Positions 24,750-59,863 of a stretch of 64,000 nt of DNA are shown in pieces. The notes beneath the pieces were generated by a model. That model searched no databases. It saw only the letters and a list, made by a program, of their open reading frames with translations, and was not told where the DNA came from. Source of the DNA: Dialister hominis (GTDB lineage Bacteria; Bacillota; Negativicutes; Veillonellales; Dialisteraceae); the NCBI RefSeq assembly GCF_007164725.1, contig NZ_AP019697.1:912001-976000 (forward strand), written 5' to 3'. The translations under genes were made by a program, and so were the position numbers. Numbering within the stretch: the stretch's first letter is position 1; each line of letters begins with the position of its first letter.

Positions 24750-25745
24750 CTATTTTTTATTGAAAATGGCACTGATTGGGTTATTGACGAACAAATCAGC
24801 TTCATTAATATATCTTCTAACCATTTCAACCGAACGGTGCCGCGTCTGCCTCATAATCAATCGTTCTTCAACACCATTCAAAGCAGCATATGTGGCAAAC
24901 CCATGCCTAAGGCTGTGTGCACCATATAAATCAGGATTCAGCCCAATCATTGACACGTACTTTTTTACGATTAGATTAATACTCTTGGAACTAAGCCTGT
25001 TTTTAGAAGCTGTGTTGTTCTTGAGAATCGAGCGGAACAGGGGGCCATCGACTAGATTGGCAGCGGTAATCCACTGTTCGACGGCTTTAACACAGTCAAA
25101 ATCGTCGTCGCTGATGCAAGGGATACCAACTTGCTGGCCCATTTGCTGCTGATCTGTTTTAGACTGTCTGACTGTCACAATAATTCCCTGATGAACTCTT
25201 TTAATATCTGTTACATCTAAACCGGAAATTTCGCTTCGGCGGAATGCACCCATAAATCCCAGCAATAAGACTGCCTTATCTCTTAATCCGCCCAGACCTT
25301 TGGTATCAATGCATTTGATCATATCGCACAGCTGGTCCCAATATATGGGAGTTTTTCCGGTTTGGGCGCCGCCCTTGAGTCTGGTCAGGCCCGTCAAGGC
25401 CTCCTTGACAATCCATTCCCGGCAGGGGTTCTCGACCTTTATGCCAGAAGTAATGGCCGCGTTATAGTTCTCTGAAATGGCACTGACCCTTCTCCTGATG
25501 GTAGCTGTCTTGGCATAATCCGCCAAATCATTGATGTAGTTGACAATTGTTTCAGCAGTTGCGGGGAAGGACGTTTGCTTATGGTATTTGCACCAATCGC
25601 AGAAATCATCCCAATCAGACCTGTATGCATCAATTGTATTCTTAGCCTTTGTACCGGCCAATGAGTTCAAACTTTTTGCAGACAACTCTTCCTGCATGAG
25701 TTTTGATTTTTGAAAATCACTGATATAAAAATTATTGCCATCCAT
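24750..25745 (-). CDS. Lone tyrosine recombinase
   Basis: Site-specific recombinase of 331 aa. N-terminal SAM-like core-binding domain (about 30-120), catalytic domain with Arg in GAFRRSEISGL, HSLRHGF, a second His in TRHRSVEM and the Tyr in VRRYINEA. The usual GHSS motif reads RHRS. It lies outside the prophage repeats, next to a hairpin-rich 400-base gap, and no cargo gene accompanies it. It may be the remnant of another element or a recombinase serving nearby inverted repeats. AAGGAT is 13 bases from the ATG. Confidence 0.85.
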   Translation of the reverse strand: MDGNNFYISDFQKSKLMQEELSAKSLNSLAGTKAKNTIDAYRSDWDDFCDWCKYHKQTSFPATAETIVNYINDLADYAKTATIRRRVSAISENYNAAITSGIKVENPCREWIVKEALTGLTRLKGGAQTGKTPIYWDQLCDMIKCIDTKGLGGLRDKAVLLLGFMGAFRRSEISGLDVTDIKRVHQGIIVTVRQSKTDQQQMGQQVGIPCISDDDFDCVKAVEQWITAANLVDGPLFRSILKNNTASKNRLSSKSINLIVKKYVSMIGLNPDLYGAHSLRHGFATYAALNGVEERLIMRQTRHRSVEMVRRYINEADLFVNNPISAIFNKK

Positions 25746-29449: not shown

Positions 29450-30475
29450 ATGCGTAAACCAAATGGATATGGTTCAATCAAAAAGCTCTCCGGCAATCGG
29501 AGGAGGCCATTTGTATTTGTTATCAGCGTTCATGGGAAGCAAAAGCCTGTCGAGTACTTTTCCACGCAGGTTGAAGCTGAAATCTTTCAAGCTGACTACA
29601 ATAAATTTCATTTCCATCGCTCCCTTCCAGGTCATCAGATAACGCTTGCTGAGCTCTATTACCGTTGGCTTCCTGCTCATACGGTCAACACCGCACCATC
29701 GCAGTCAACACTTGACAGCTACACCAATTCATTCAAGCACTTGGTTCCTCTTCACTATGAGCCATTCCAAAGTCTAAAATATGCAGACTACCAGAAAATT
29801 CTTGATTCCATGCGAAAGAGCGGGCTGTCTTACAGTTCTCTGAAGAAAGTCCGCTCTTTGATTTCGTTACTTGAAAAATATGCTGTGAAAATTGAGTTGA
29901 TAAATAAATGCTACGCTCCCCTGCTATCAATCGGCAAGAATAAGGCTGTACATCCACACCATCCATTCAGTCGGCAGAAAATTAATCGGCTTTGGGCACA
30001 CTGCGATGAGCCCGGTGTTGATACGGTGCTCATTCTGCTTTACACCGGTATGCGTGTTGGCGAGATGCTGGCACTCCAGAAGAATGATGTGAACCTCCGG
30101 CAGGGATACATGCGTATTACAAAAAGCAAGACCGTTTCCGGCATCAGAACCATCCCCATCCATCATCGGATTTTCCCTCTCATTACAAACCGTATGAAAT
30201 CAATCGGTGTGCATCTGATAGCGGATTCCAAAGGAAAGCAATATGACTACAGTCGCTATTGCCAGCTTTGGCGTGATGTCATGCACTCCATCAAAGCTGA
30301 TGGTCATACAACCCACGACTGCCGCCATACTGTAGCAACACTGCTGGACAATGCAGGAGCCAATGAAACAGCAAAACGGCGTGTATTAGGTCATGCCGGA
30401 GGAGATGTGACTGAAAGGGTTTACACACACAAGGGCTTGCGACAGCTACGAAAATGCATAGAGCTGCTAAAGTAG
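29450..30475 (+). CDS. Tyrosine recombinase of the fibre switch (Rci-like role)
   Basis: Site-specific recombinase of 341 aa. Catalytic pieces are Arg in LYTGMRVGEML, a Lys in RITKSKT, HDCRHTVA, GHAGGDVT and Tyr in ERVYTHKG. It is the only plus-strand gene inside the late operon, far from attL/attR, and directly borders an array of fibre C-terminal cassettes in both orientations. The phage already has its own integrase at 58748. This argues that it inverts the cassettes rather than integrating the phage, as Rci does for the R64 shufflon. GAGGTGAT precedes the ATG. Confidence 0.85.
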   Translation: MRKPNGYGSIKKLSGNRRRPFVFVISVHGKQKPVEYFSTQVEAEIFQADYNKFHFHRSLPGHQITLAELYYRWLPAHTVNTAPSQSTLDSYTNSFKHLVPLHYEPFQSLKYADYQKILDSMRKSGLSYSSLKKVRSLISLLEKYAVKIELINKCYAPLLSIGKNKAVHPHHPFSRQKINRLWAHCDEPGVDTVLILLYTGMRVGEMLALQKNDVNLRQGYMRITKSKTVSGIRTIPIHHRIFPLITNRMKSIGVHLIADSKGKQYDYSRYCQLWRDVMHSIKADGHTTHDCRHTVATLLDNAGANETAKRRVLGHAGGDVTERVYTHKGLRQLRKCIELLK

Positions 30476-30711
30476 TGTTACTAGTACGCTACTCAATCAA
30501 TCGCACGCATTACCGTATTATCTGCATTATCCGTGGCTTGATGGTTGTTACTATTGATACTGGATAAAACAGCCAGATTAGCATATATTTACACTTCTAC
30601 GATTGTAGATATCTGATGTTCTGGCGGGTTTTTCATTGATTTTATTTTTAAAAAATCATGCATACTCTGCTTACTCTAACCTACTTCTCCTGTTTCGTAA
30701 CAATCCCTCTA

Positions 30712-30954
30712 CAGTGGGTAACAACAGATACGTTTCACTTAAACGGCGAACAAATTTTTGATGCCACAATAACTTATCCAGTACAAATGGCACATGCACT
30801 TGCTGTTACAGTCCTCCATCAAGGAGGACCAGTATCCAATCCAGCAAGTTGCGCTTGTACAAACTTTACGGCGACCACCTGCTCTTTACGTATAGGGGTT
30901 AAGGCTCAAACCAATAACGTGACTGGTATATGCCTTATCATCGGCAGTAACTAA
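30712..30954 (+). other. Silent fibre C-terminal cassette 1 (inverted)
   Basis: An 81-codon segment (with stop) that begins CAG TGG GTA (QWV) in an ACAGTGGGTA box and reads ...DATITYPVQMAHALAVTVLHQ... to GICLIIGSN and a stop. No ribosome site. Its orientation is opposite to the fibre gene. The preceding 30476-30711 stretch shows nothing I can support. Confidence 0.75.
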
Positions 30955-30955
30955 A

Positions 30956-31183
30956 CAGTGGGGAAATATCTACACGAGCAGTGATGGATTCGGAGCAGTT
31001 AATTTTCCTCTATCGTATACGCAAAATTGCTTTGGGATTTATGCCATGGCACAAGACACTGCAGAAACGCATGAACATGTTTCGTACTATCAATTGGGAA
31101 AATCTAGTTGTATGTTTTATACAGAAACAAATCAAAGCGGTGGGAAATCGCTGCATTGTTTATACTTTTCTGTCGGATATTAA
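30956..31183 (+). other. Silent fibre C-terminal cassette 2 (inverted)
   Basis: A 76-codon segment beginning QWGNIYTSSDGFGAVNFPLS in an ACAGTGGGGA box one base after the stop of cassette 1, and ending LHCLYFSVGY and a stop. No start codon or ribosome site. Same orientation as cassette 1. Confidence 0.8.
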
Positions 31184-31197
31184 GCCCAGATGTTCAA

Positions 31198-31410
31198 CAG
31201 TGGGGATTTTTATCCAATGGTATGCTAACTGCTTTACCTATTGCTTTTAATAATAACGGATATACGTTAGTCGCCACTGCAAATGGCGAAGTTTCAAATT
31301 CTGGGTCTATCAGAGTAGTAAAAGTGCTATCTCAGAATCAAATCCAAATAATTAGCGATGGCCAGCCTACAGAGTCGAAGGGCAGTTATTGGATTGCTAT
31401 AGGGAAATAG
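31198..31410 (+). other. Silent fibre C-terminal cassette 3 (inverted)
   Basis: A 71-codon segment beginning QWGFLSNGMLTALPIAF in an ACAGTGGGGA box and ending GSYWIAIGK and a stop. It resembles the expressed fibre tip both at its start (QWGF, PIAF) and at its end (IAIGK), though it lies on the opposite strand. Confidence 0.85.
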
Positions 31411-31428
31411 CCATTTAACGTTGTCTAC

Positions 31429-31656
31429 TCAAAAATAAACCAAAATCCATTTTGCCATTACTCCTTTAGTCGAAATGCCATTAGGACGATATGTCGTTAT
31501 CAATATAATGTTTTGGGAGACTAAATCTCCATTCCACACGGCATCACTAGTTCCTGCATCAGATACATTTAGAACTCCTATGCCGTGTGTTGCGGAGATT
31601 GGCAATGTTACATATGTATTTGTATTACCATTAGAATTTACTATACGTCCCCACTG
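31429..31656 (-). other. Silent fibre C-terminal cassette 4 (same orientation)
   Basis: A 76-codon segment on the fibre strand, starting QWGRIVNSNGNTNTYVTLPI in an ACAGTGGGGA box 4 bases after the fibre stop, and ending AKWILVYF and a stop. It has no start codon or ribosome site of its own. It meets cassette 3 tail to tail at 31411-31428. Confidence 0.8.
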
Positions 31657-31660
31657 TCCA

Positions 31661-32704
31661 TTATTTCCCGATTGCTATAACAGCAGCATAAATGTCGCCC
31701 TGTTTAACGTTATCTCTCCAGCCATTCAAGATAAATGATCTATTACTATCATTATCAACCGAAATGATGTAATAATTTGAGTCTGTTGTACTAGCTAACA
31801 CCGACGCCGCAATACAATATGGATTTATGCTAAAAGCTATCGGGTACGATTGACTCGCATTACAAACGTAGAATCCCCACTGTATAATTAGCCCGCCAAA
31901 CAGACTGCCAAAGCATACATACCCATTTGTATCAATTAAATACTTTACTCCGCTAGCATCTAAAAGCAGCTTTATAAGCTTTCCCAGTACTGAATCAGTG
32001 GTAATAGCATCCACTACGGTCCCAAGTGTCTTGCTTGCGAGGCTTGCCATAATTCCAGAGTGCCAGTCGGTAATCTGGGCAGATTCCGTCTCAGGGTGCA
32101 GTGTGTCATAGCTATTCGTTGTCTTATTCCACCGATGAAGAATAGATCTCAGCCCGTCTTTGATTTCCACCCAAAGGCCTTTTTCGTCCATACTTGCCGG
32201 CTTCCCTACCGTAGCGGTCACTTGCAGTCTATCGTCAAGGTCGCTCATGTGAGCGTAAACGATGGAGCCATCCACCAGCACAGCAATATTTGCAGAAGAG
32301 CTTACGATGAGGTTCACAACCAACCTGTTTTCATCTGTCGGTGTGTCCTTGTTTGGGATGTAATCATAATCGTTTCCGGCGTTACTGTATGCGTAGAGTG
32401 TTTCGGCCCCGTCGTCCAGCTTTGCAAACACGCCCAGCTCTCTGGAGACGAATCCTTCTTCAAGAGCCGTGTTTGACGTGTTAAATGTAAGGGAAATCTT
32501 TTCTTTACCCGAATCATCTTTCTTTACCACCGGGAGCTCCATTTTGGGAGCCTTCAAGTCGGTAAATTTGGTAATGTCATCGCTGTCTGTCAGAACGCCG
32601 CTGCCAAGCTTGCCTTTGGTAAAAGTGAGTGTGTGCCCGTTCTGGGACTGAATCAGCATCTTCATGCCTGCTTCGGTAAATGTTAAACTTGGAAATTTAG
32701 CCAT
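31661..32704 (-). CDS. Tail fibre protein with switchable C-terminal tip
   Basis: Collar-type tail fibre (347 aa) that should carry the receptor-binding tip. The constant part (residues 1-273) begins MAKFPSLTFTEAGMKMLIQ, typical of phage tail-collar fibre N-termini that dock on the baseplate. The last 74 residues start at QWGFYVCNASQSYPIAF, follow LFGGLII and end AAVIAIGK; this tip is replaceable by the four silent cassettes. The gene overlaps the preceding baseplate gene by 8 bases, and a run of eight G lies about 10 bases before its ATG as ribosome site. Confidence 0.9.
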   Translation of the reverse strand: MAKFPSLTFTEAGMKMLIQSQNGHTLTFTKGKLGSGVLTDSDDITKFTDLKAPKMELPVVKKDDSGKEKISLTFNTSNTALEEGFVSRELGVFAKLDDGAETLYAYSNAGNDYDYIPNKDTPTDENRLVVNLIVSSSANIAVLVDGSIVYAHMSDLDDRLQVTATVGKPASMDEKGLWVEIKDGLRSILHRWNKTTNSYDTLHPETESAQITDWHSGIMASLASKTLGTVVDAITTDSVLGKLIKLLLDASGVKYLIDTNGYVCFGSLFGGLIIQWGFYVCNASQSYPIAFSINPYCIAASVLASTTDSNYYIISVDNDSNRSFILNGWRDNVKQGDIYAAVIAIGK

Positions 32705-42933: not shown

Positions 42934-44094
42934 TCAGGCGGTAGCATTGCCTGCCAGCATAACCAGAGAATTAAAATCAACCGGTTTACCATCGGCAATC
43001 ATGATTGACTTCCTTACAAGATCGTCGGTGTCATTGTCTTCATATATCTTCATGGCCACGCTGTAGTTGCTGTTGAGTACGTAGTCCTTCATGCGGTAAA
43101 TGAAGGCGAACACGTCGGTTTTATTCAGTGTAGTAGAAAATGCCGGCAGGTAGTCGCAGAGCTCTACGTTGCGGCCCAGGAGGACTCTGGAAGGAACACC
43201 GTTGATACCTGCAGTCACTCTTGCAATGGGCTGGCCGTTGGAGTCGGTCATACCGATAAAAGACATAAAAGTAGCTTTGCTCATTACCCATACAGAACCT
43301 GCTTCATATGCCTGGGGAATGGCGGCTTCTGCCTTAATGAGGGTATTATAATCAAGCTTTGCGGCGTTGATGGTGACGCCCTGAGACTTATCCGCCAGGA
43401 TGCCTGTGGGCTGACCGGAGCCGGTGCCGTTGATAATAGATTCTTCCAGAGCTACCACCATAGCCTCTGCCACATTGTTCACAATGATATCTTCAAATGC
43501 GGAAAGCGTCATGTTCTCGGTTTCAAGGGTTACAGCAACAGCACAGCGCAGTTTGAAATGGCTGAAAGTAATGCTGCCCAGCACCTTTTTCTGCTTTTCG
43601 GAAGTAGCCCCTTCTGCTACCCACTTAGCCACCGGCTTTACGTTGGATGTCGGGATGGCAAGGCCGGTCTTATAGGCCGTGCGGGTTACCAGGGGCAGAA
43701 TATTGCCATAGGTACGAACCTTTTCAATAACGCGGTTCAGGGTAGTCGGCGGAATCAGCGCGGCTGCATCTGTGGTTGTAGCGGCATCGCGGAATTCAGC
43801 AGGAATCGGCGTACCCTTGGTTACATATTCCATGAATGCGGAACGGTATTCGTCGGATTCATATGGATTTTTCTTTACGGCGGCCTGGGGCTTGCTTCTT
43901 TTCTGCACGCCTTCCGGTTCCTTGTCGAACTGAATTCCCTGGGCAATCTTTTCACGCTCTTCGATTTCCTCATGTTCTGCATCCAGTTTTTTCAGTTCTT
44001 CCTGCAGCGCGTTCAGGTTCACCTTACCTTCGCCTTCCAGCGCTTTTCTGATTTCCATTTTTCTTGCTCTAATTTCAAGAAGTCTCTTATTCAT
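42934..44094 (-). CDS. Major capsid protein, HK97 fold
   Basis: Shell protein of 386 aa. The first ~100 residues are a Lys/Glu-rich coiled coil (delta domain), normally removed by the prohead protease, followed by the HK97 core (ATTTDAAALIPPTTLNRVIEK, NGTGSGQPTGIL, RVLLGRNVELCDYLP). AAAAGGAGAG precedes the ATG. Downstream of the protease gene. Confidence 0.96.
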   Translation of the reverse strand: MNKRLLEIRARKMEIRKALEGEGKVNLNALQEELKKLDAEHEEIEEREKIAQGIQFDKEPEGVQKRSKPQAAVKKNPYESDEYRSAFMEYVTKGTPIPAEFRDAATTTDAAALIPPTTLNRVIEKVRTYGNILPLVTRTAYKTGLAIPTSNVKPVAKWVAEGATSEKQKKVLGSITFSHFKLRCAVAVTLETENMTLSAFEDIIVNNVAEAMVVALEESIINGTGSGQPTGILADKSQGVTINAAKLDYNTLIKAEAAIPQAYEAGSVWVMSKATFMSFIGMTDSNGQPIARVTAGINGVPSRVLLGRNVELCDYLPAFSTTLNKTDVFAFIYRMKDYVLNSNYSVAMKIYEDNDTDDLVRKSIMIADGKPVDFNSLVMLAGNATA

Positions 44095-44112
44095 TTTTTC
44101 TCTCCTTTTATT

Positions 44113-44715
44113 TTACAAAAAAGTTTCTATAATGAGCTTCTTTCGAAGTTCTTCACTCTTTTCCTTCTCCTGTAGTTCGGCAATCATGGCATTATGGCCT
44201 CTGGCTTCAATGCTTGTGCCATCGTATGCAGGGAAATCCACCGGACTGACGTCCATGATGAAATCAATGTGATCGATGGTCCTTGTCTGTGTCTTTGCCA
44301 CCGAATCGTTTTCCCAGGAGTCTTTATCACTTGTATAAGCAAATGACATCTTGGAAATGTCTCCCCGCTTAATCAGCTGATAAATGTCCCTTCCTGTCGT
44401 GGTAGGCGCAATGTCCGCATCAATCTTGAGCCCCTTCTCATCCACATTGAGACGCAGGGTTCCGTTGGAAGTCCTTGCCAGGATCAATGCGGAGTCGGAG
44501 TGGTTATACCGCAAGATGACGTCGCTCATGTCCGTATTGGCATCAACGGCCCCAGGAGCGATGACTTCATAGTATTTCGTGCCGGAGTACGGACTCTCCC
44601 ACAGCAGTGTTTTCTGATTGAAAACCAGTGCATAACCCTCGACATGAAGATTCTCCCCATCCGCATCATCAGCCGCCCTGAGCTGCATGCTTCGTACCTT
44701 AATCTTCTTTCTCAT
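44113..44715 (-). CDS. HK97-type prohead protease
   Basis: Serine protease of about 200 aa that trims the capsid scaffold. Motifs: VEGYALVFNQ, RYNHSD with the catalytic His, and ISKMSFAYTSD with the Ser. ATG 44715 (MRKKIKVRSM) follows GGGGGTGATGGGG; the frame is open 9 codons upstream. It overlaps the portal gene by 17 bases. Confidence 0.94.
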   Translation of the reverse strand: MRKKIKVRSMQLRAADDADGENLHVEGYALVFNQKTLLWESPYSGTKYYEVIAPGAVDANTDMSDVILRYNHSDSALILARTSNGTLRLNVDEKGLKIDADIAPTTTGRDIYQLIKRGDISKMSFAYTSDKDSWENDSVAKTQTRTIDHIDFIMDVSPVDFPAYDGTSIEARGHNAMIAELQEKEKSEELRKKLIIETFL

Positions 44716-45952
44716 CCCCATCACCCCCTTTCGAATCATCATCGTCTTTACCCGTCTGGTAAAGCGACTGGTCCTTGGTCTTTACATAATTCAGGCTGAC
44801 CACAATTTCCTCGCCTTCCTTGCCAGGCAGTCCGGCATATCCGAATAGCTCTCGGATTTCATTCCGCTTGATAGCTCCCGCCGGAATCATGGCCTCCGCA
44901 ATCTTTACCTTGGAGGTGGTGCTCATGTATGCCAGGCGGTTCCCCTCGAATACGATTTCATTCCCGAATCCTCTTTCCTTGGGAGTGAAGATTTTTTCCG
45001 TGAATTCCTGTGACAGCTTGATTGCTATCGGGGCAATGACGCTTTCATAGAATGCCTGATACTCTTCTTCCTTAAACTTTCCGGAGACGATTTCTTCGGA
45101 AACTCCGAAGTACTTATACAGATTGTCCCTGGCAAACTTCATCTGTCCCGACTCGAAGGTCTGTGTATCTGTAGTCAGCTGCTGGAACTTGCCTCTGTTA
45201 TCCAGTGAACCGATGCCGGAACCGTTGGACGGCCCTGCAAAGCTGTCCACGAATTTCCGCCACATGCTTTCCTGGTCTTCCGGCCTCACGGTACCAGTCC
45301 ACTGGATGATGCCGCGGAGCTTGTGAAAATTCTTCACCACGTTGATGACTGCCGTCTTCACTGCCTTCAGGAGGTTGATATCCTCCCTCAGAATCTTTCC
45401 TTCTGGATCTCCAAAGACGTCATCCCGATTGAAGTGTCTCCGGATGTGAATCATCTCTTCGTAGGGAACCGTAGCTTGTTCCCCGGTTCCGAATGTGAAA
45501 CGGCAGTAAAGGTTACCCTTCTTGTCCTCAAAAAGCTCCAGATTATTGAAATTCAGCGGCCAAAGAGCCTCCACATTTCCATTCATGTCTCTCTGGATGT
45601 ACACGAAGAGGTTATTGTAGCAGTAATACTGGGCCACAATCTTTTCAATGAACTCCGATGCCGTCATGATCCAGTTCGGCCTGGTAGAAAGGATATACTG
45701 CAGCTTGCTGTCCGCATTTTTCACAATATTTCCGTTCTTCAGGACTATGTGGCGCGGATGGAGCTTTCCGGCATGACGCGCAATGGTATCAATGCAGTTT
45801 CTTCCGGTGGCGTTGTCATAGGCTTCCCCGTCGAAAGGAACGTAGTCATTTGACCATCCGTTTAGCAGCTTTGCCCTGGTAAGTCCATCCTGGCCGCCGG
45901 TGATTCTGCCAAAGATGTTCCGGATCATGCTTCTTAGTTGGATTTTTCTCAA
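44699..45952 (-). CDS. Portal protein, HK97 family
   Basis: Dodecameric DNA gate of the capsid (417 aa). Recognisable motifs are NCIDTIARHAGKL, WPLNFNNLELF and KYFGVSEEIVSG. I prefer a TTG start at 45952 because GGGGGTGA lies 5 bases before it; that places it 14 bases after the terminase stop. A TTG at 45970 is also in frame. Confidence 0.94.
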   Translation of the reverse strand: MRKIQLRSMIRNIFGRITGGQDGLTRAKLLNGWSNDYVPFDGEAYDNATGRNCIDTIARHAGKLHPRHIVLKNGNIVKNADSKLQYILSTRPNWIMTASEFIEKIVAQYYCYNNLFVYIQRDMNGNVEALWPLNFNNLELFEDKKGNLYCRFTFGTGEQATVPYEEMIHIRRHFNRDDVFGDPEGKILREDINLLKAVKTAVINVVKNFHKLRGIIQWTGTVRPEDQESMWRKFVDSFAGPSNGSGIGSLDNRGKFQQLTTDTQTFESGQMKFARDNLYKYFGVSEEIVSGKFKEEEYQAFYESVIAPIAIKLSQEFTEKIFTPKERGFGNEIVFEGNRLAYMSTTSKVKIAEAMIPAGAIKRNEIRELFGYAGLPGKEGEEIVVSLNYVKTKDQSLYQTGKDDDDSKGGDGDEKED

Positions 45953-45966
45953 ATCTTCACCCCCTC

Positions 45967-47631
45967 TCAAATCATGTTCATGTAGTCTTCTTTGTAAGTT
46001 TCATAAGCAGTGTAGGCATCCAGCAGGGAAGCAAAGCCGTCGATGCGCTTTCTTGGGTTGCTTGTCTTGCATGGCTGAATGTTGTCATTTCGGTCCACAT
46101 CCACTGCTACATTGGCCATACACCATTTCAGGATAGGGTTGTTGTTGTAAATCACCCTTTTGGCCTTCAAATCAGCCGCCAGGTTCTTCATCGGCCCGGA
46201 GAGTGTCTTTTTCCCCTGGGCCACAGGCACCATGATATCTTCTCCGAATCGTTCAGTCATGGACTGCACCAGGTACTGGGCAGACCACCGGTCATAGCCG
46301 CACTTGAACAGGTAGATATCATCCTTCTCCATTTCATCCACGAACCACTGCAGGATAAGGCGGTAGTCATTGCGGAAGCCTGGTGAAGTCTGCAGCCACC
46401 CTTTCTTCTTCCATATGTCATATGGCACCTGGTCTTCCCTCACCCGCTTTTCCAGAAGATCTTCCGGTATCCAGTACATCTGCTTCACGTAGATGTTCGG
46501 ATTGTCCTTCACGCAGAAGAAAATAGTGGCGCATGTTAGGTCTGTGGTCTCGGAAAGGTCGAATCCTCCTACCCCGTACCGCGGATGAAGAGACCGGATG
46601 TCATACTTTTCTTCATTGTTCAAATCATCGAATGAGAAGAAAGCTTCGCCGCCGGTCTCACGGATGTTGAAATCCTTGCACAGCAGGTTCTTCACGCGGA
46701 GTGCGTCATGCTGTGCCTGGTATACTTTCTGTGCCAGGGTTTCCTTGTTTTTGATGCTGCCCAGTCCCGGATTGGCTTTCTGCCATTTCGCCGGGTCTGT
46801 CCATTCTTCCCTTTTGTCCAGTTCATAAACGAAGGGAAGAATGGTTTCATCTTTGTACCCTTCCCTATCCTCATAGCCTTTTACGATTCTTTCGCATTCA
46901 TCGTATTTTAGGTCGAAGATGTTATCCCGAACCGTTCCGGCTGTGGATGTGATGATACATACCGGCTGTTCCCTGGCAGTCATACCGTCTATGAGGACGT
47001 CATAGAGGTTCTTGTCCTTCAATGCATGGAGTTCATCTATCAGCGCTCCATGAACGTTTAAGCCATCCAGCTTATCCGAATCACTTCCCAGCGCTTCGAA
47101 TGAACCTTCATTGAACCTTGACCGGATGACGGATACGCGGAGGTCCAGTTTCTTGTGAAGCGCCGGCGACTTCTTCACCATGGCGCACGCTTCCTTCCAG
47201 ATGATCTTCGCCTGGTCCCTCTTCGTGGCGGCGCTGTAGATTTCCGGCCCCGCTTCACCATCCGCAACCAGAAGGTATAGCCCAAGGCAGGATGCGAAAG
47301 TGGATTTACCGTTCTTTCTGGCCACGATAAGGATGAGCTGCTTATATTCACGGAGCCCCGTGTTTTTATCCACAAAACCGAAAAGCGCCGCCGTGATTGC
47401 CTTCTGCCACAGTTCCAGAATGACCGGTTTCCCTGCCCACTGCCCCTTGGAGTGCTTGCAGAATGTCTGTATGAAATCAATCACGTACTGCGCTTTGTCG
47501 TCATCGTAGATGTATTTGGATTTTTTGTCGTGCAGCTTGTCCACCAGGTGCTTCATGACTCGCCGCACCTTATCGGATACCACTACATCTCCGGATAGAA
47601 TCTGCCCATAGTATTTCTCTATGTAGTTCAT
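45967..47631 (-). CDS. Terminase large subunit
   Basis: DNA packaging motor and nuclease (554 aa). The ATPase part has the Walker A-like LIVARKNGKSTFAS and Walker B VHGALIDELHAL; the nuclease part has GVGGFDLSETTDLT with acidic residues. It belongs to the HK97/P27-associated type. It overlaps the small subunit by 4 bases. Confidence 0.96.
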   Translation of the reverse strand: MNYIEKYYGQILSGDVVVSDKVRRVMKHLVDKLHDKKSKYIYDDDKAQYVIDFIQTFCKHSKGQWAGKPVILELWQKAITAALFGFVDKNTGLREYKQLILIVARKNGKSTFASCLGLYLLVADGEAGPEIYSAATKRDQAKIIWKEACAMVKKSPALHKKLDLRVSVIRSRFNEGSFEALGSDSDKLDGLNVHGALIDELHALKDKNLYDVLIDGMTAREQPVCIITSTAGTVRDNIFDLKYDECERIVKGYEDREGYKDETILPFVYELDKREEWTDPAKWQKANPGLGSIKNKETLAQKVYQAQHDALRVKNLLCKDFNIRETGGEAFFSFDDLNNEEKYDIRSLHPRYGVGGFDLSETTDLTCATIFFCVKDNPNIYVKQMYWIPEDLLEKRVREDQVPYDIWKKKGWLQTSPGFRNDYRLILQWFVDEMEKDDIYLFKCGYDRWSAQYLVQSMTERFGEDIMVPVAQGKKTLSGPMKNLAADLKAKRVIYNNNPILKWCMANVAVDVDRNDNIQPCKTSNPRKRIDGFASLLDAYTAYETYKEDYMNMI

Positions 47632-58747: not shown

Positions 58748-59863
58748 ATGAATTCAATCCGGAAGCGCGGTTCCAAATATTACTACCATGTTTACGTGCT
58801 GGATGAGAATGGGAAACGTGTTCGGAAGGAATATGCCGGCACATCTGACCGGAATGAAACAATCCGGATCATGCATGCTGCCCAGGCTGAAGCTGACCGG
58901 ATGGGCAAACTTGCCAGCAAAATGACAGTGGAAAAGTTTTTTATGCTCTGGGAATCGGAAGAGCTGTCCGCCGGAAACTATAAAATCAATACTGTCAGAG
59001 CTTACAAATCAGCCATTACTCATTACATTCTGCCATCTCTGGGGAAAGAAGAACTGAAAGATGTAACGCCCAGGGAGCTCCAGAATCTTCTTAATAAGCT
59101 GAGAGATAACAGATTCTCCCGCTCCACAGTGAATACAGTCTGCTCCGTTTTGAAAAAATCCTTTACTTATGCCACAAGTTTTTCCGGCCTCATCCCTTTG
59201 AATCCTTCAAAAGACATTGTTCTCCCCCGCTTCTTTTCCCCTGAGAAACATGAAGAAGCAGTCTGCTTTACTCCGGAAGAAATGGATAAAATCTTTGCGC
59301 ACTTTCCGCCTGGGCATGACTTTTATATGATGATTGCCCTCTCATACTATGCCGGCCTCCGCTTAGGAGAATGCTGCGCTCTTTCATGGAATGACGTAAA
59401 CATGAAAGACATGACCATCCGAATCAGCAGAACACTAGTCCAACAGGGGAAGGAATGGACCTTCCAGGCTCCGAAAACGGAGAATTCCATCCGCACTATC
59501 TACTTTGGCAGTAATCTTTATAAGATTTTTGAGTCCCAGAGATTCCGCCAGCTCCAGAACCGCCTGAAATATGGCCAGTGGTACACCAATAACAATCTGG
59601 TAGCTCCCCATGAAAATGGAGAAATCATGACTCCGGACAGCATGCGCTATTTCGGCAAGTGGTGTCATAAAACATTCGGGAAAGGCACCTTCCATTCTCT
59701 TCGTCACACATATGCATCCCAAATGCTGGAGGCAGGAGCTGATGTTGAACTGGTAAGCAAGCAGCTTGGTCATTCCAGCATCGTCACCACTACAAAGATT
59801 TATTCCCACATCCTGGAAAAGCGCCGGAAGAAGCTTGTTTCTATCATTGATAATGCATTGTAA
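58748..59863 (+). CDS. int: Phage integrase (tyrosine recombinase)
   Basis: 371 aa: N-terminal arm-binding domain (KYYYHVYVLDENGKRVRKE), core-binding domain and catalytic domain with Arg in GLRLGECCALSW, HSLRHTYASQ, LGHSSIVTT and Tyr in KIYSHILE. It is 95 bases from attR, the expected place, so it is the enzyme for integration. GGTGGTGAAACG precedes the ATG. Confidence 0.95.
   Translation: MNSIRKRGSKYYYHVYVLDENGKRVRKEYAGTSDRNETIRIMHAAQAEADRMGKLASKMTVEKFFMLWESEELSAGNYKINTVRAYKSAITHYILPSLGKEELKDVTPRELQNLLNKLRDNRFSRSTVNTVCSVLKKSFTYATSFSGLIPLNPSKDIVLPRFFSPEKHEEAVCFTPEEMDKIFAHFPPGHDFYMMIALSYYAGLRLGECCALSWNDVNMKDMTIRISRTLVQQGKEWTFQAPKTENSIRTIYFGSNLYKIFESQRFRQLQNRLKYGQWYTNNNLVAPHENGEIMTPDSMRYFGKWCHKTFGKGTFHSLRHTYASQMLEAGADVELVSKQLGHSSIVTTTKIYSHILEKRRKKLVSIIDNAL

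What the first reader, a model, noticed from the sequence alone, without database searches (positions are those of the whole stretch)
30476..32704. Shufflon-like array of alternative receptor-binding tips behind the tail fibre gene
The fibre gene ends in a 74-residue tip starting QWGF. Behind it lie four further segments of 71-81 codons with no start or ribosome site. Each opens in frame with QWG or QWV, resembles the tip domain to varying degree (PIAF, IAIGK shared with cassette 3) and carries its own stop. Three are inverted and one is in the same orientation. Inversion between the fibre box and an inverted box would swap the expressed tip without breaking the frame. This predicts a phage that changes host receptor specificity.
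Basis: partly seen in the sequence, partly recalled or inferred. Interest (0 to 1): 0.95.

Follow-up and report, generated by a model that had tools for sequence, protein, structure and literature searches.

The report
Phage tail-tip shuffling array with recombinase
A virus living in the chromosome of a gut bacterium (genus Dialister) carries five interchangeable tips for its host-gripping tail fibre next to its own DNA-flipping enzyme, and a second nearly identical copy of the virus in the same chromosome has the spare tips in a different order, which shows that the array really is reshuffled.

Summary
The fibre gene (31661-32704, minus strand) ends in a 73-residue tip. Behind it lie four tip cassettes without expression signals, each opening with the same 10-bp box ACAGTGGG(G/T)A (5 copies in the window, 0.13 expected). 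The same chromosome holds a second copy of this prophage (one substitution in about 11.7 kb around the array) whose cassettes differ by at least two inversions, with every breakpoint inside a box. The fibre-attached tip is the same in both copies. Another near-identical pair (L071/L072) does differ in the attached tip, and several tips silent in one phage are attached in another. About 35 prophages from Dialister, Allisonella, Acidaminococcus, Megasphaera and unnamed hosts share the layout, with 2-13 tips and four main box types. Tips resemble gp53/R-pyocin lectin-like fibre heads. It works like the Rin shufflon of bifidobacterial prophages but differs in box, tip fold and recombinase (arm-type domain). 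I call it a new variant of a known kind. The effect on receptor choice is inferred, not shown.

The parts
29450..30475 (+). Tyrosine recombinase (341 aa), the probable shufflon invertase; N-terminal arm-type domain, core-binding domain, catalytic domain with R202 K227 H289 R292 H315 Y325
   Evidence: PF00589 E 4.7e-18; residues invariant in 32 relatives; model pLDDT 87 with b-b-b-a N-terminal domain; Foldseek to Tn1549 Int and full-length lambda Int
30476..30493 (+). Direct repeats G[AT]TAC[TC] right after the recombinase stop (TGTTACTAGTACGCTACT); candidate arm-type binding site
   Evidence: 71 forward vs 3 reverse occurrences in 37 relatives, shuffle mean 5.5, max 13; alignment; function inferred
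30546..30561 (+). Second pair of the same direct repeats (TGTTACTATTGATACT); candidate arm-type binding site
   Evidence: function inferred
30711..30720 (+). Crossover box 1, ACAGTGGGTA
30712..30954 (+). Silent tip cassette 1 (QWVTTDTF..., 80 aa)
30955..30964 (+). Crossover box 2, ACAGTGGGGA (an observed inversion breakpoint)
30956..31183 (+). Silent tip cassette 2 (QWGNIYTS..., 75 aa)
   Evidence: moved and inverted in the second prophage L009
31197..31206 (+). Crossover box 3, ACAGTGGGGA (an observed breakpoint)
31198..31410 (+). Silent tip cassette 3 (QWGFLSNG..., 70 aa), closest to the attached tip (35%)
31429..31656 (-). Silent tip cassette 4 (QWGRIVNS..., 75 aa), same orientation as the fibre
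31648..31657 (-). Crossover box 4, ACAGTGGGGA (an observed breakpoint)
31661..31882 (-). Attached (expressed) tip, QWGFYVCN..., gp53-like receptor-binding domain, 73 aa
   Evidence: PF21882 on the full fibre E 2.9e-6; tip model Foldseek AP22 gp53 and R-pyocin fibre heads
31874..31883 (-). Crossover box 5 inside the fibre gene, ACAGTGGGGA
31883..32704 (-). Constant part of the tail fibre gene (about 273 aa), ending ...LII before the box
   Evidence: PHROG 7037 tail fibre E 3.6e-37

Best explanation
This is a phage-encoded multiple-inversion system (shufflon) for the tail fibre tip. The recombinase at 29450-30475 exchanges DNA within the first about 7 bp of two oppositely oriented boxes. When one partner is the box inside the fibre gene (31874-31883), a different lectin-like tip is joined in frame to the constant fibre; inversions between the other boxes rearrange the spare cassettes. 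Each lysogen or burst can so yield particles with different tips, which most likely bind different surface receptors. Shown here: the anatomy, its recurrence in about 35 prophages, and rearrangement at the boxes. Inferred: that the adjacent recombinase does it, that the downstream direct repeats are its arm sites, and that receptor specificity changes.
For: Two nearly identical prophages in one chromosome differ by cassette inversions whose breakpoints fall in the 10-bp boxes, with 1 substitution in about 11.7 kb around. L071/L072: 99.98% identical flank, rearranged array, different tip attached. Attached-in-one, silent-in-another tips: L067/L068 99%, L082/L036 97%, L053/L035 94%, L070/L068 91%, L059/L061 84%. 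Junction table: sequence up to -1 stays with the left flank, variants at box positions 7-9 travel with the cassette. Box codons are fixed at synonymous sites (CAG 66/66 against 24% elsewhere in cassettes). Arrays follow the recombinase in nearly all relatives of at least 41% identity and are absent beside 30-35% relatives and unrelated integrases. Catalytic residues invariant. Tips look like receptor-binding fibre heads.
Against: The two prophages of this genome carry the same attached tip. They come from one assembly, where near-identical repeats invite misjoining (though not inversion exactly at boxes). In L071/L072 the recombinase is frameshifted in both genomes and the tip attached in L071 is frameshifted, so that pair is not proof of present activity. 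No reads, biochemistry or binding data. The box sits on a motif (IIQWG) that also occurs in single-tip fibres without arrays.
Confidence: 0.92

Rival explanations
1. The cassettes are remnants of duplicated fibre tips, rearranged now and then by homologous recombination; the boxes are alike only because the protein motif IIQWG is conserved.
For: IIQWG gp53-like tips occur in other phages without arrays; tips within an array are only about 22% alike, as expected of old acquisitions.
Against: All 70-80-codon frames are open. Synonymous positions of the box are fixed within each subfamily and differ between subfamilies (CAG/CAA, GGG/GGT). Breakpoints lie in 10 bp, too short for homologous recombination. 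A recombinase is adjacent in all these arrays.
Confidence: 0.04
2. The recombinase is the phage's integrase and the boxes are decoys or secondary attachment sites.
For: It has the arm-type domain and direct repeats typical of integrases.
Against: The prophage has a separate integrase at its edge (58748-59863). The array-side recombinase lies between lysis genes and fibre, and both prophages of the genome carry it intact. Its adjacency to box arrays is conserved in about 35 phages.
Confidence: 0.03
3. Different cassette orders are assembly artefacts.
For: Arrays often break assemblies: contigs end within them (L034-L036, L038, L082, L083, L085, L091, L095, L101) or hold Ns from the box on (L037).
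Against: Breaks at boxes are what mixed orientations would give. L071/L072 come from separate genome records. The same tips occur attached or silent in different assemblies with 84-99% identity.
Confidence: 0.04

Closest known systems
Rin shufflon of Bifidobacterium breve/longum prophages (Mavrich et al. 2018, PMC6109161)
   Same: Prophage, tyrosine recombinase next to a constant receptor-binding gene and an array of alternative C-termini, short asymmetric site (11 bp rix) at the start of each, tip swap by inversion, dissimilar tips.
   Different: Rin is described as lacking the arm-type domain, which this recombinase has by model. Site TTCCCTAACCC against ACAGTGGGGA and its variants. Bifidobacterial variable ends resemble the TP901-1 receptor-binding protein; here gp53/pyocin-like tips on a contractile tail. 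Hosts are Negativicutes. Arrays here reach 13 cassettes.
R64/IncI plasmid shufflon (Rci, sfx sites, PilV; PMC11852207)
   Same: Tyrosine recombinase, asymmetric sites with a short core and one conserved side, C-terminal adhesin tips swapped by inversion.
   Different: Recombinases align only over about 140 residues of the catalytic domain at 26%. Rci shows no arm-domain match and has its own C-terminal extension. Plasmid pilus, not phage fibre.
Gin/Cin/Min tail-fibre inversion systems of Mu, P1 and p15B
   Same: Phage tail fibre variable ends switched by DNA inversion; Min has several segments.
   Different: They use serine recombinases; here the enzyme is a tyrosine recombinase.

Membership tests
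Shufflon (multiple DNA inversion system) | Several alternative C-terminal segments bounded by short repeats in both orientations | tested here: met
Shufflon (multiple DNA inversion system) | Adjacent site-specific recombinase with intact catalytic residues | tested here: met
Shufflon (multiple DNA inversion system) | Different arrangements among near-identical copies, breakpoints in the repeats | tested here: met
Shufflon (multiple DNA inversion system) | Recombinase shown to invert the segments | not testable with these tools
   needs an experiment
Rin system of bifidoprophages | Phage receptor-binding gene, tyrosine recombinase, array of variable ends | tested here: met
Rin system of bifidoprophages | Recombinase without N-terminal arm-type domain (PMC6109161) | tested here: not met
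   Model shows a three-strand plus helix N-terminal domain (residues 9-55) and aligns with full-length lambda Int; no Pfam arm-domain hit, so this rests on the model
Rin system of bifidoprophages | rix site TTCCCTAACCC | tested here: not met
   Box is ACAGTGGG(G/T)A
Rin system of bifidoprophages | Recombinase sequence relationship to Rin | not tested
   No Rin sequence at hand
R64 Rci/sfx shufflon | Rci-type recombinase with C-terminal extension | tested here: not met
   Only the catalytic domain aligns, 26% over 142 aa
Gin/Cin/Min serine invertases | Serine recombinase | tested here: not met
   PF00589 tyrosine recombinase
Diversity-generating retroelement | Reverse transcriptase and template/variable repeat pair | not tested
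   The mechanism seen here is segment inversion; no reverse transcriptase turned up among the neighbours scanned, but no dedicated search was made

The most novel reading that the evidence does not exclude
One arm-type tyrosine recombinase can serve two separate tip arrays kept apart by different core sequences. In Dialister succinatiphilus the recombinase is flanked on one side by six gp53-like tips with box ACAGGGTGGA and on the other by four Gp10_C collar-type tips with box CCATTGAGGA. The two boxes differ in most of the 7-bp exchange region but share CA and G within it and GGA to its right, so each array would recombine only with itself. Arm sites beside the gene would bias the reaction to inversion.
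Probability: 0.3. Interest if true: 0.72.

Novelty: new variant of a known kind. Interest (0 to 1): 0.6.

Why it matters
It extends tyrosine-recombinase tip shuffling from a few bifidobacterial prophages to a widespread family of phages of Negativicutes. It gives about 150 distinct receptor-binding tips that phages treat as interchangeable parts. It offers a reason why assemblies of these prophages break behind the fibre gene. It also supplies recombinases with at least four distinct short boxes, which makes the inversion-versus-deletion question for such enzymes directly testable.

Tried and rejected
Named phages: no close relative of the recombinase (best 32%). Those I opened (Butyrivibrio phage Arawn, Fusobacterium phage FNU4, Ruminococcus phage phiRg519T2) have ordinary-looking integrases with no box array. 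Loci with 30-35% identity (L073, L074) and weaker relatives in the family (L029-L031) also lack arrays. Pattern scan for the fibre junction GGNYTAATTATACAGTGGGG found, besides known arrays, mostly single-tip gp53-like fibres or truncated contigs (one search used a wrong frame and was repeated). Scan for cassette 3 in viral contigs gave only the records with the two known prophages. Rfam and tRNA scans of the window gave nothing. The NAR paper I recalled on gene-altering inversions is not held. Paper searches found no description of this family in Negativicutes. Rejected: homology-only, integrase-only and assembly-artefact readings (see rivals).

Full report
What is there. The fibre gene runs on the minus strand from 32704 to 31661 (347 aa). 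Its first part is a tail fibre of PHROG 7037 (E 3.6e-37) and its end is a Gp53-like_C domain (E 2.9e-6). It lies in a complete contractile-tail prophage: terminase, portal, protease and capsid (42934-47631), sheath, tail tube, tape measure, baseplate J and Mu Gp48-like protein, then the fibre, and beyond the array holin and endolysin. Behind the fibre, four segments of 70-80 codons open in frame at a 10-bp box, ACAGTGGG(G/T)A, and end in their own stops; three are inverted and one has the fibre's orientation. The box occurs five times in 64 kb, all here; chance expectation 0.13.

The enzyme. It shows no significant pairwise match to the other recombinase at 24750-25745 and is separate from a third one at 58748-59863 near the far end of the prophage, which I take for the integrase. 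R202, K227, H289, R292, H315 and Y325 are invariant in 32 relatives. The model (pLDDT 87) has a small three-strand plus helix domain at residues 9-55, then the core-binding and catalytic domains; Foldseek aligns it with Tn1549 integrase and full-length lambda integrase. No Pfam model of an arm domain was hit, so the arm domain rests on the model. Right behind the stop codon, relatives carry direct repeats G[AT]TAC[TC] at regular offsets (about +4, +15, +74 and +83): 71 on the forward and 3 on the reverse strand in 37 loci, shuffle mean 5.5. I infer that these are arm-type sites; other subfamilies seem to have other direct repeats in the same place.

The array is reshuffled. The window's own genome (2.4 Mb, one contig; same genus as Dialister succinatiphilus) contains the boxes a second time, at 429.4-430.1 kb, in a second copy of this prophage (L009). 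Its order is S1, -S3, S2, S4 relative to the window, and the matches overlap by about 10 bp at each junction, exactly the box. Around the array there is one substitution in about 11.7 kb, so inversion is faster than point mutation here. The attached tip is the same in both copies. A second near-identical pair from separate genome records, L071 and L072 (99.98% in the flank), differs in order and in the attached tip. That pair needs a caution: the recombinase is frameshifted in both and the tip attached in L071 is frameshifted. Across less related phages, tips attached in one are silent in another at 84-99% identity.

Where the exchange happens. In the table of shared junctions the sequence up to the base before the box stays with the left side, while variants at box positions 7-9 (GGA, GTA, ATA) travel with the cassette. 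The exchange therefore falls in the first 7 bp, ACAGTGG here. The box covers the codons Gln-Trp-Gly, which open the gp53-like tip, so every inversion keeps the frame. The motif IIQWG is also found in single-tip fibres of other phages, so the box sits on a more general protein motif. It is nevertheless held at the DNA level: the Gln codon is CAG in 66 of 66 boxes of this type against 24% CAG elsewhere in the same cassettes, and other subfamilies fix other synonyms (CAA GGG GGA, CAG GGG GGA, CAG GGT GGA).

How widespread. A scan of one genome per species and of viral contigs gave relatives in Acidaminococcus, Allisonella, Megasphaera, Dialister, an uncultured Veillonellaceae and many unnamed phages. 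Nearly all with at least 41% identity have the array straight behind the recombinase, 2-13 cassettes where the contig is long enough. Boxes: ACAGTGGGGA, CCAGGGGGGA, CCAAGGGGGA, ACAGGGTGGA, and rarer variants. Loci with 30-35% identity, ordinary phage integrases and the window's other two recombinases have none.

The tips. 59 of 99 tips match Gp53-like_C. The tip model (pLDDT 77) is a six-strand beta domain whose best structural matches are the AP22 gp53 fibre, R2 and R1 pyocin fibre heads and H-type lectins. The E-values are weak (8e-3 at best); the fold probability is 1.00 for the top three. Tips within an array average 21-29% identity in the eight arrays measured. That they bind different receptors is an inference from this.

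Comparison. The working principle is that of the Rin shufflon of bifidobacterial prophages, reported as the first phage-encoded tyrosine invertase (PMC6109161). Same: constant and variable receptor-binding parts, short asymmetric sites, adjacent tyrosine recombinase, inversions found by comparing copies. Different: box, tip fold, contractile tail, host group, and an arm-type domain that Rin is said to lack. Rci of R64 matches only over the catalytic domain (26%); its sites also have a 7-bp core with one conserved side (PMC11852207). I found no description of this family in the held literature, but most subscription papers are missing there. Hence: new variant of a known kind.

Noticed in passing
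L039 4805-5785 and L028 5859-7444 (Dialister succinatiphilus): A second array on the other side of the same recombinase: four Gp10_C (collar-type) tips with box CCATTGAGGA in both orientations behind a second fibre gene.
   Followed up: partly
window 30476-30561 and the same place in relatives: Strand-biased direct repeats G[AT]TAC[TC] at fixed distances behind the recombinase stop; other subfamilies seem to carry different direct repeats there (TTTAAATCG, TTGCTCA).
   Followed up: partly
L043 6176-6198 and 6826-6848; L066 8661-8683 and 9796-9818: Head-to-head boxes with a 3-bp spacer (TCCCCACTGT TSA ACAGTGGGGA), nearly symmetric double sites that might allow deletion as well as inversion.
   Followed up: no
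L034, L035, L036, L038, L051, L054, L082, L083, L085, L091, L095, L101; L037 9190: Assemblies end or turn into Ns inside or near the array, as expected of mixed orientations in the sequenced culture.
   Followed up: partly
L071 and L072: Recombinase frameshifted in both and the tip attached in L071 frameshifted at its box, so these arrays may be frozen.
   Followed up: partly
L031 1-1208 (genome G010): CRISPR-like array with at least 18 repeats beside a distant tyrosine recombinase relative.
   Followed up: no
window 24750-25745 and 58748-59863: Two further tyrosine recombinases at the two edges of the prophage region, the first near lexA.
   Followed up: no
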